A stretch of 49,019 nucleotides of DNA from an uncultured Hyphomicrobiales bacterium (GTDB lineage Bacteria > Pseudomonadota > Alphaproteobacteria > Rhizobiales > Beijerinckiaceae), in the NCBI GenBank assembly GCA_903897875.1, contig CAIUDK010000159.1, positions 1 to 49,019 of the forward strand, written 5' to 3'. A model generated the notes under the pieces. That model worked only from the letters and a program-made list of their open reading frames with translations, did no database searches and had not been told where the DNA came from. Made by a program: the position numbers and the translations under genes. Shown here one piece after another: positions 22,845-33,075 of the stretch. Position 1 is the stretch's first letter. Each line of letters begins with the position of its first letter.

Positions 22845-23960
22845 TTACAGGCCCGGCAGCAAACGTCCAAACAGCTTTGCGGTGTAATCCACCATCGGCA
22901 CGATGCGCGCATAATTCAAACGCGTGGGGCCAATGACACCCACAACGCCGACAATTTTTTGCGAGCTGTCTCGGAACGGTGCTGCAATCATGGATGAGCC
23001 CGACAGCGAGAACAATTTATTTTCCGAGCCAATAAAAATACGAACACCTTCGCCTTGTTCAGCGCGTGACAAAAGATCGACCACATCCTTCTTGGTTTCC
23101 AAATCTGAAAACAACAGACGGATGCGTTCCAGATCTTCCAACGCCGTCAAATCTTCCAATAGATTGGCCTGTCCGCGCACAATCAATTGCGGCCCTTCAC
23201 CCGTCAGCCCCGCCCATGAGGCAAGGCCCGCATCGACAAGACGCGAGGTGAGTTCATTCAATTCTGCCTGTGTGGTTTTGCGCGCATGCTCAATATCACG
23301 ACGCACATCTTCCAATGTATGGCCGCGGATGCGTGAGTTGAGATAATTACCAGCTTCGACCAAAGCGGAGGCGGGGAGATCGCGCGGAATTTGCAAAACA
23401 CGATTTTCAATCGAACCATCTTCGGCCACCAACACAGCCAAAGCGCGCTCAGCTTCCAAGCGCACAAATTCAATTTGCTTGAGGCGTGCATTTTCTTTGG
23501 AGGTGAGCACAACGGCGGCGCCACGCGACAGGCCCGACAAAAGATTGGAGGCCTCCGTCAGCACAGTTTCCATCGTGCGGTCATGCGATGTGGCTCTGAC
23601 CTGCGCATCAATCTTACTGCGCTCATCATCAGGCAGATCGCCGATTTCCAACAAAGCATCGACGAAAAAGCGCAGCCCCAATTCGGTGGGCAGACGGCCA
23701 GCACTGGTGTGGGGCGCATAGACGAGGCCCAATTCCTCAAGATCTTGCATCACATTGCGCACAGAGGCGGGCGAGAGCGTCATGGGGAGTAGGCGCGCCA
23801 AATGGCGCGAGCCAACCGGATCGCCGGTGGCTAGATAAGAATCAACGATATGTTTGAAAATTTCCCGCGACCGCTCGTTCAGCGCACTCAAAGCGCTTCG
23901 GTTCAGGGATAAATTTTCCAAGGGCGATTTTTTTAGGCCCGGATCATGTGAGGCAACCAT
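22845..23960 (-). CDS. hrcA: Heat-inducible transcription repressor HrcA
   Basis: The 371-residue product matches HrcA, which represses chaperone operons at CIRCE sites and needs GroEL for folding. The N-terminal winged helix includes [31 protein letters not shown] and the recognition region [39 protein letters not shown]. The C-terminal domain ends with the family's [34 protein letters not shown] 23960 has GAGG almost touching it, so the start may lie slightly downstream. Neither grpE nor dnaK is adjacent, and no CIRCE element (TTAGCACTC-N9-GAGTGCTAA) is present in its promoter region, so autoregulation is not evident. Confidence 0.95.
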
Positions 23961-24025
23961 GCCTCAAGGATGGGGGGTGACGCGGCACAAAGCAAGCCCG
24001 TCACCCTATAGTTTGGAACCCGAAG

Positions 24026-24616
24026 CTAAAACCAAGGCACATAAGCAGCTATGCCGCGCCCCACATTGGCCATTTCATCGCTGATGGCGGCAACCATGGG
24101 AAAGCGTTTGGCCTTGGGGCGAAAATCATGCGGTCCATAGCCCTGAGCCAAGGGAATGTCCGCAGGTGGAACAATCGCATCGGCCCGTGCCACAGTTTGC
24201 GGCAAGGTTTGGGGCAAGAGGGGTGCGGCTGGTTGTGAGGCCACGATGATGGTTTCAGGCAATGGGGCCAGAGGTGCTAAGCGCGCCACAGACTGTGGCT
24301 TTGCGGGCGAGCGCACGGCTGCAATTGCCTTAGGCGTGGGCTTCACAACGGGCACTGGTGCAAGCTGGGGCTCGAGGTCGCGCAAAGGAGCGACGTGTGA
24401 CAAAGCGTCGGCGGCAAGCTCAGCGTGACGCAACTCAGTATCAGGCGACACTTGTGCTGGTACGGGGATAACAATTGCTTGAGACGTCTGCGCAACAGGC
24501 TTTTGATCCACGACGCGCGTGAGCACCACCTGCGTCAGCGCAATGGTGATGACGCCAAACACGATGGTCTCCCACATATGATGATGGATGATCCGGGTCT
24601 TGGGCGCCGCGTCCAT
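24026..24616 (-). CDS. Unknown Pro/Ala-rich membrane-anchored protein
   Basis: This 196-residue product has no family I recognise. A single N-terminal membrane helix (about residues 15-33, MWETIVFGVITIALTQVVLTRVV) is followed by a long low-complexity Pro/Ala/Val stretch (about 45-150) that should span the periplasm, and a short C-terminal part with FPMVAAISDEMANVGRGIAAYVPWF. A His-rich patch (IIHHHMW) precedes the helix. The start codon ATG at 24616 has AAAGGAG six bases upstream, and that site is paired in a long hairpin. It lies downstream of transaldolase and upstream of hrcA, all on one strand. Confidence 0.65.
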   Translation of the reverse strand: MDAAPKTRIIHHHMWETIVFGVITIALTQVVLTRVVDQKPVAQTSQAIVIPVPAQVSPDTELRHAELAADALSHVAPLRDLEPQLAPVPVVKPTPKAIAAVRSPAKPQSVARLAPLAPLPETIIVASQPAAPLLPQTLPQTVARADAIVPPADIPLAQGYGPHDFRPKAKRFPMVAAISDEMANVGRGIAAYVPWF

Positions 24617-24624
24617 GAATAGCT

Positions 24625-24660
24625 CCTTTGCGTCTCTCCAAAATGGGAGAAACGCAAAGG
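24625..24660 (-). promoter_or_regulatory. 15-bp hairpin sequestering a Shine-Dalgarno sequence
   Basis: On the reverse strand CCTTTGCGTTTCTCC pairs with GGAGAGACGCAAAGG around a six-base CATTTT loop. The 3' arm ends in the AAAGG of the ribosome site AAAGGAG of the 24026-24616 gene. With one U-G pair the stem is otherwise perfect. No T-run follows, so it is not a typical terminator for transaldolase. Confidence 0.6.
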
Positions 24661-24735
24661 TGAGCTAACTTCACGGCAACAATGTGTCGTCTTGACCACT
24701 TTGGCCAAAAACTTTGCCGTTAACGCTCGAGGCCG

Positions 24736-25683
24736 TTAGCCTTCAAGACGATGCGAGACGAGCTCACGCAAAGCGCGCAAGTCTTTCGTGAACATGCGAA
24801 TGCCTTCAGACAATTTCTCGGTCGCCATCGCATCTTCATTCATCAAGAAGCGGAACGTCTTTTCATCCAAATTCATGCGCGCTGGCACATCGCGTGTGTC
24901 AGACGGCGAGAGACGACGCGTGAGCGTGCCCTCATCCTTGGCCAATTGCTCCAGCAATTGTGGAGAAATGGTGAGACGATCACAGCCAGCCAAAGCTTCG
25001 ATTTCGCCCAAATTGCGGAACGAGGCCCCCATCACAACCGTGTCGATGCCGTGTGCTTTGTAATAGCGATAGATTTGATGCACCGACAACACGCCAGGAT
25101 CCGTCTCAGCCGTATAGGACTTGCCTTCATTCTTGACGTACCAATCAAGAATACGACCCACAAATGGCGAAATCAGATAAGCGCCCGCATCTGCGCAAGC
25201 TGCAGCTTGGGCCAGCGAGAACAGCAAAGTCATATTGCAGTCGATCTTATCTTTTTTCAAAATCTCGGCGGCACGAATACCTTCCCACGTCGCTGCCAAT
25301 TTGATGAGGACGCGACCACGCGGCACACCACGCGATTCATAATCAGCAATCAGCGCGCGGCCCTTGTTGACCATGGCGTCAACATCGAATGACAGATCAG
25401 CATCCACTTCCGTCGACACACGACCGGGTACGATCTTGGCCAACTCAGCACCAAAATTCACCGCCAAACGATCTGTGACTTGGCTGGTGACACGATGATG
25501 GCTCAGGCCCCATTCAATCGCTTCATCAACGATATGCGCATAGGCAGGCATTTGCGCGGCTTTGAGAATCAAAGTGGGATTGGTGGTGCAATCGGTCGGC
25601 TTGAAGACGCCGATGGATTCCATGTCGCCAGTATCGGCAACGATGGTGGTCATGGATTTTAACTGTTCAAGCTTCGATGCCAT
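24736..25683 (-). CDS. tal: Transaldolase
   Basis: The 315-residue product is a TalB-type transaldolase of the pentose phosphate pathway, moving a dihydroxyacetone unit from sedoheptulose-7-phosphate to glyceraldehyde-3-phosphate. Signatures are [18 protein letters not shown] near the N-terminus, [11 protein letters not shown], and the Schiff-base lysine segment [13 protein letters not shown] near residue 130; [30 protein letters not shown] follows. The track opens at 25704, but ATG 25683 ([19 protein letters not shown]) is the usual start. It follows the LysR gene by about 60 bases on the same strand. Family assignment is secure. Confidence 0.95.
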
Positions 25684-31362: not shown

Positions 31363-33075
31363 TTAGAACATGAAATAGCGCTGCGCCATGGGCAGCACAT
31401 CGGCGGGCTCACAGGTCAGCAACACGCCATCAGCCGTCACCGCATAGGTTTCTGGATCAACCTTCAATTTGGGTGTCGCATTGTTGCGCACCATATTGGC
31501 CTTGGAAATCTGGCCGCGCGTATTCTCAACGGCCACAAGGGTTTTTTGTACGCCTAGCGCCTGACCAATGCCCTTATCAAGAGCGAGCTGCGATACAAAG
31601 GTCAAAGAAGTTTGTGTGCGCGCACGGCCATAGGCCCCAAACATCGTGCGATAATGCACGGGCTGCGGTGTGGGAATAGACGCATTGGGATCGCCCATGG
31701 GAGCAGCTGCAATCATGCCGCCCTTGAGGATGAGATCAGGTTTGACTCCAAAAAACGCTGGCGTCCACAAGACGAGATCGGCAAGCTTGCCTGCCTCCAC
31801 CGACCCAATGTGACGCGACACGCCATGCGCAATGGCGGGATTGATTGTGTATTTGGCGATATAGCGTTTGACGCGCTCATTATCAGAGCCTGTCTTTTCA
31901 CCCTCTAGCGGTCCGCGCTGACGGCGCATTTTATCGGCTGTCTGCCATGTGCGAATGATAACTTCGCCTACGCGGCCCATCGCTTGGCTGTCGGAAGACA
32001 TCATGGAGAGCGCACCAAGATCGTGCAAAATATCCTCTGCCGCAATGGTTTCTTTGCGAATGCGACTCTCCGCAAACGCAAGGTCTTCAGGAATGGATTG
32101 ATCGAGATGATGACAGACCATCAACATATCGAGATGTTCATCCAATGTGTTGCGCGTGAAGGGGCGCGTTGGATTTGTGGAAGAGGGCAAGACATTGGGT
32201 AGGCTCGCCACGCTGATAATATCAGGTGCATGACCACCACCTGCGCCCTCGGTGTGGAAGGCGTGAATGGTGCGGCCCTTAAACGCCTTGATCGTATCTT
32301 CGACAAAGCCAGATTCGTTGAGCGTGTCAGTGTGGATCATCACCTGCACATCGTGATCGTCGGCAACACTCAAGCAATTATCAATCGCGGCCGGTGTGGT
32401 GCCCCAATCTTCATGGAGCTTGAGTGCGCAAGCACCTGCCGCAATCTGTTCAACTAAACCGCCCGGTGTGGCCGCATTGCCCTTGCCAGCAAAACCAAGA
32501 TTCATGGGGAAGGAATCAGCCGCCTCAATCATGCGCGCAATGTGCCATGGGCCGGGCGTGCATGTGGTGGCAAACGTGCCCGTCGCTGGTCCTGTGCCGC
32601 CCCCCAACATGGACGTGACGCCTGACATCAGAGCTTCTTCAACCTGCTGCGGGCAGATGAAATGAATATGCGTATCAAAACCACCTGCGGTCAGGATTTT
32701 ACCCTCTCCCGCAATGATTTCGGTGCCCGGTCCAATAACGATATCAACATTGGGTTGAATTTCTGGATTGCCCGCTTTGCCAAGTGCAGCAATGCGGCCA
32801 TCGCGCAAACCCACATCGCATTTGATAATGCCCCAATGGTCAATCACGACAGCATTGGTGATGACCGTATCCATCGCGCCTTGCGCGCGCGTCATTTGCG
32901 ATTGGCCCATGCCATCACGAATGACTTTGCCCCCGCCAAACTTCACTTCCTCGCCATAGGTCGTGAAATCTTTTTCAATCTCGATAAAGAGCGATGTATC
33001 AGCAAGGCGAACTTTATCGCCTGTTGTGGGGCCAAACATATCGGCATAAGCGGCGCGTGTGATTTTAGTGGCCAT
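31363..33075 (-). CDS. ureC: Urease alpha subunit
   Basis: The 570-residue product is the catalytic subunit, hydrolysing urea to ammonia and carbamate at a dinickel site. All expected ligands are visible: HIH in [14 protein letters not shown], the carbamylated lysine in [15 protein letters not shown], His in [11 protein letters not shown] and [16 protein letters not shown], the flap cysteine and histidine in MLMVCHHLD, and Asp in [13 protein letters not shown]. Length and sequence are fully canonical, so it should be active once nickel is inserted. It follows the fused ureAB gene by 41 bases on the same strand. A divergently placed regulator gene separates it from ureEFG. Confidence 0.98.

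What the first reader, a model, noticed from the sequence alone, without database searches (positions are those of the whole stretch)
24614..24660. Long hairpin that hides the ribosome-binding site of a membrane protein gene
A 15-bp stem with a six-base loop ends in the AAAGG of AAAGGAG, six bases before the ATG. Such sequestration is the design of RNA thermometers and other translational switches. The gene lies directly upstream of the heat-shock regulator gene hrcA. The stem looks very stable, so a simple thermometer would need help to open.
Basis: partly seen in the sequence, partly recalled or inferred. Interest (0 to 1): 0.5.

Follow-up and report, generated by a model that had tools for sequence, protein, structure and literature searches.

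The report
Hairpin hiding a gene's ribosome-binding site
In an uncultured Beijerinckiaceae bacterium, the messenger RNA is predicted to fold into an exceptionally long hairpin that buries the ribosome-binding site and start codon of a little-known membrane protein gene, so it probably keeps that gene's output very low; it does not behave like a temperature sensor, and its position beside a heat-shock gene looks accidental.

Summary
The hairpin is real and longer than reported. In the minus-strand mRNA a 15-pair stem (24625-24660) continues, past two 2-nt bulges, into a 27-pair stem (24613-24676) that buries the Shine-Dalgarno (SD) sequence, the spacer and the AUG of a 196-aa one-TM protein gene ("X", 24616..24026). 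Among 454 SD-preceded starts in 1.05 Mb of this genome (39%), it is the least accessible and has the most negative local folding energy. It is not an intrinsic terminator, not a repeat, and has no Rfam match.

X is a fast-evolving family found almost only in this genus, usually just downstream of transaldolase (tal). No sequenced relative shares the leader sequence, so base-pair covariation could not be tested. X starts in 17 relatives are less accessible than the tal starts of the same genomes (p = 0.003, relatedness not corrected). A few relatives have strong, unrelated SD/AUG hairpins; several have none.

A thermometer is not supported: the SD stays about 97% paired at 60 C. Direct hrcA adjacency is peculiar to this genome, and the HrcA operator lies elsewhere. 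Most likely a strong translational silencer of X on tal-X transcripts; whether anything opens it is unknown. No expression data exist.

The parts
24625..24660 (-). Core hairpin: 15 contiguous pairs, 6-nt loop (24640-24645), 3' arm ends in the AAAGG of the SD
24613..24676 (-). Extended hairpin: 27 pairs in three blocks (15+5+7) with two 2-nt bulges on the 5' arm (24661-24662, 24668-24669); buries SD, spacer and AUG
   Evidence: accessibility of -15..+3 is 0.03
24623..24629 (-). Shine-Dalgarno sequence AAAGGAG, fully paired in the predicted structure
24026..24616 (-). Gene X: 196-aa protein, one N-terminal TM segment, Pro/Ala-rich linker, ALSHVAPLR-type motif; no Pfam or NCBIfam match
24736..25683 (-). 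tal, transaldolase (PF00923), upstream gene on the same strand; its stop codon lies 59 nt before the 5' arm of the extended stem
24677..24735 (-). tal-X intergenic stretch upstream of the stem: no terminator-like or sigma-70-like site found by the scan
22845..23960 (-). hrcA, directly downstream of X in this genome only

Best explanation
The hairpin is a cis-acting RNA silencer of translation. When RNA polymerase reads from tal into X (no terminator is seen between them), the 5' arm emerges before the ribosome-binding site and the two fold together, so that SD and AUG lie in a 27-pair helix and 30S subunits seldom bind. X, a membrane protein, is thereby made at a much lower level than transaldolase from the same message. 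Shown: sequence, position, extreme rank in this genome, tal-X synteny. Inferred: co-transcription, folding in the cell, repression. A conditional opening step (RNase III cut of the long helix, an sRNA or a protein, or a second promoter inside the 5' arm) is possible but has no evidence.
For: A 27-pair stem covers SD and AUG. It is the least accessible of 454 starts in 39% of the genome. There is no terminator tail and no scanner terminator, no second copy in the genome and no Rfam family. The tal-X gene pair is kept in about 18 genomes while the X proteins have diverged to 17-30% identity with the window's. X starts are less accessible than tal starts in 17 relatives (paired Wilcoxon p = 0.003), with strong SD/AUG hairpins of unrelated sequence in L014, L076 and L110.
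Against: No transcript, ribosome-profiling or reporter data. The leader is not conserved in sequence, so there is no covariation. Several relatives' X starts are ordinarily accessible (L091, L093, L094, L095, L224, L225). The p value ignores shared ancestry; collapsed to six groups, the X start is clearly lower than the tal start in about three or four. The MAG is fragmented (351 contigs).
Confidence: 0.55

Rival explanations
1. Conditional switch that is opened: RNase III cleaves the long helix and frees the SD, or an sRNA or protein remodels it, turning X on under some condition.
For: A 27-pair helix is of a size RNase III can cut (general knowledge). With an SD this tightly paired, X would need some help to be made at more than a trace level.
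Against: No known ligand-binding or regulatory element, no Rfam match, no shared sequence in relatives.
Confidence: 0.15
2. Read-through guard: X has its own promoter within or just before the 5' arm. Messages from tal fold and are silent, while messages from the proximal promoter lack the 5' arm and are translated.
For: This design is known from phage and transposase genes (from memory). It would make sense of a nearly absolute block.
Against: The scan finds no sigma-70-like promoter in the leader, although other promoter types are not covered.
Confidence: 0.12
3. 3'-end or processing hairpin of the tal message (stability or RNA cleavage); burying the SD of X is a side effect.
For: The stem lies in the tal-X gap. 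Hairpins at gene ends are the usual site of long stems in this genome, and tal in several relatives without X is followed by a strong terminator.
Against: No U-tract. The pairing runs precisely through SD, spacer and AUG. The stem begins 59 nt beyond the tal stop.
Confidence: 0.12
4. RNA thermometer controlling X in heat shock.
For: SD in a hairpin; hrcA is the next gene.
Against: SD stays paired up to 80 C in the model. Direct hrcA adjacency is specific to this genome. No Rfam thermometer family matches.
Confidence: 0.02
5. Chance or neutral inverted repeat, or a DNA-level operator palindrome.
For: Absent at sequence level in all relatives searched.
Against: No shuffle comes near. Both non-Watson-Crick pairs in the extended stem are G-U in the sense RNA, whose fold is about 7 kcal/mol more stable than the antisense. 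The bulges lie on one side only, which is awkward for a DNA operator.
Confidence: 0.04

Closest known systems
Cis-acting SD-sequestering hairpins (for example the inhibitory hairpin of E. coli glmS mRNA, opened by the sRNA GlmZ; PMC8346122)
   Same: SD buried in a local hairpin just upstream of the AUG
   Different: Here the stem appears longer and buries the AUG too (from memory of glmS), and no activating partner is known
ROSE-type and other RNA thermometers (PMC8346122)
   Same: SD paired in the 5' region; thermometers are known from alphaproteobacteria (from memory)
   Different: Thermometers rely on loops and weak bonds at the ribosome-binding region; this stem is nearly perfect and does not melt at living temperatures in the model
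Read-through-blocking hairpins of phage T4 late genes and IS10/IS50 transposases (from memory)
   Same: Messages from an upstream promoter fold so that the SD is hidden
   Different: No proximal promoter found here; an ordinary chromosomal gene pair
RNase III-activated messages such as E. coli adhE (from memory; no paper found in the library)
   Same: Long structure over the SD that cleavage could relieve
   Different: No evidence of cleavage

Membership tests
SD-sequestering translational silencer | SD and/or AUG base-paired in the mRNA leader | tested here: met
   Predicted accessibility 0.03, lowest of 454 starts; prediction only
SD-sequestering translational silencer | Translation rises when the stem is broken and falls again when pairing is restored | not testable with these tools
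   Needs a reporter
SD-sequestering translational silencer | Pairing kept by compensatory changes in relatives | tested here: inconclusive
   No alignable leader in the 99 family genomes searched; group-level accessibility test only
RNA thermometer (ROSE, fourU and others) | SD pairing loosens in the physiological temperature range | tested here: not met
   SD unpaired 0.019 at 37 C, 0.029 at 60 C
RNA thermometer (ROSE, fourU and others) | Match to a described thermometer family | tested here: not met
   Only microRNA-precursor noise far below gathering scores
Intrinsic terminator | GC-rich stem followed by a U-tract | tested here: not met
   Tail AGCTATTCA; terminator scan negative at this place
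Palindromic repeat (REP/RPE-like) | Several copies in the genome | tested here: not met
   One copy only
HrcA/CIRCE regulon | CIRCE operator near the gene | tested here: not met
   None in the window; one elsewhere in the genome

The most novel reading that the evidence does not exclude
Start-site occlusion of X is a conserved regulatory trait of the tal-X gene pair in this genus, kept by selection on structure while the sequence turned over completely, so that unrelated hairpins (as in the window, L014, L076 and L110) do the same job.
Probability: 0.15. Interest if true: 0.5.

Novelty: new member of a known kind. Interest (0 to 1): 0.3.

Why it matters
It gives an unusually clean natural example of near-complete burial of SD and AUG inside what looks like a two-gene message, and flags an undescribed, lineage-restricted membrane protein family next to transaldolase. 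If the tendency to occlude is real across the genus, it would be a case of structure-level conservation without sequence conservation, testable with simple reporters.

Tried and rejected
Terminator (no U-tract). Repeated element. Rfam element. HrcA operator. Upstream ORF coupling: two GTG/TTG frames run through the stem but none has a convincing SD. Covariation: no alignable leaders. X protein alone in genome contigs found nothing. A repeat finder and a pattern call (20) were malformed and gave nothing.

Full report
Observation. On the minus strand the sequence between tal and the next gene reads GCCGUGAAGUUAGCUCACCUUUGCGUUUCUCCCAUUUUGGAGAGACGCAAAGGAGCUAUUCAUGG. The 15-pair core is as described; the SD AAAGGAG and the AUG lie in the 3' arm of a longer 27-pair helix with two 2-nt bulges on the 5' side. 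The core folds at -24.8 kcal/mol and the extended hairpin at -38.3; the antisense strand gives -21.6 and -31.3.

Chance and genome context. In 304 kb of this genome, shuffles gave no stem above 13 pairs. In 1.05 Mb, 15 stems have 15 or more pairs; most long stems carry A/T tracts and sit at gene ends, as terminators do, and seven of the 15 lack a T-rich tail. Among 454 SD-preceded starts this one has the lowest accessibility (0.026) and the lowest folding energy (-39.2). The second least accessible (L297) looks like a terminator next to a doubtful GTG start. Milder cases of SD-pairing hairpins exist at other genes of this genome (for example L278, L266, L159), so the device itself is not unique here.

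What the gene is. X has no Pfam or NCBIfam match of its own. Downstream of tal in other genomes of the genus there is often a diverged protein of the same plan: N-terminal TM segment, Pro/Ala-rich linker, ALSHVAPLR-like motif and a C-terminal amphipathic-looking tail. A profile finds it in 19 genomes of this genus and, weakly, in 3 others among 397 of the family; a few of these copies are not next to tal. A second, longer group at the same place (L088, L093, L094, L102, L107) is probably related by position and C-terminus. Named relatives are mostly Beijerinckiaceae or Hyphomicrobiales metagenome assemblies. hrcA is directly next to X only in the window's genome.

Conservation of the structure. 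No genome shares the leader; DNA matches stop within tal. Each leader was therefore tested on its own. For 17 relatives, accessibility of -15..+3 averages about 0.36 against 0.48 for their tal starts; paired Wilcoxon p = 0.003, and X against its own shuffles p = 0.015 over 20 relatives. By group the mean z is -1.8 (L014, L076), -1.5 (L126), -1.3 (L075, L078, L087), -0.5, -0.2 and +0.1. tal is as inaccessible as X in L126 and in one other group. So there is a tendency, not a rule, and it does not reach the window's extreme. Start choice in relatives was by hand, usually the first ATG with a plausible N-terminus; this is a source of error.

Mechanism. SD unpairing is predicted to stay at 0.02-0.03 between 20 and 60 C, which excludes a simple thermometer in the model. 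No promoter or terminator is seen in the gap. The simplest reading is a strong translational silencer on a tal-X message. How X is made at all, whether by leak, cleavage, a remodelling RNA or protein, or a second promoter, is open.

Known kinds. SD-masking hairpins and thermometers are reviewed in PMC8346122: glmS is an SD-masking hairpin opened by the sRNA GlmZ, and thermometers depend on loops and weak bonds near the ribosome-binding site. The window's hairpin works like the first kind on prediction and fails the defining temperature feature of the second.

Limits. There are no expression data; folding is predicted for naked RNA with standard parameters; the genome is a fragmented MAG; phylogenetic dependence was handled only by rough grouping.

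Noticed in passing
window 32634-32923 (+): Rfam RF02514 (5_ureB_sRNA) at 91 bits, far above its gathering score of 40, in an alphaproteobacterium near urease accessory genes; the family may simply overlap ureB coding sequence.
   Followed up: no
window 23949-23966: Inverted repeat TGAGGCA-ACCA-TGCCTCA directly over the first ATG of the hrcA ORF (23960); the true hrcA start may lie further in.
   Followed up: no
L278 near 13286 (-), L266 near 780 (+), L273 near 8246 (+), L159 7961-7994 (+): Other genes of the same genome with a hairpin pairing the SD, weaker than the one studied.
   Followed up: partly
L014, L076, L110 leaders of the X gene: Strong hairpins of unrelated sequence over the SD of the X gene in relatives; in L014 and L076 the AUG is paired as well.
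   Followed up: partly
L033, L038, L040 (same genomes as L094, L102, L093), between tal and the X-like gene: A shared leader stretch (stem around TTCATTTTGGGACAAAG, with CTAGAGC...GCTCTAG in L038) between tal and the longer X-like gene, not overlapping the SD.
   Followed up: no
L017, downstream of tal: Long palindromes of the TTCTCCCAATGGGAGAAG type, looking like a mobile palindromic repeat; that type is not present in the window's genome.
   Followed up: partly
L314 (G000:C345:5291-5317): The only CIRCE-like HrcA operator found in this genome (1 mismatch).
   Followed up: no
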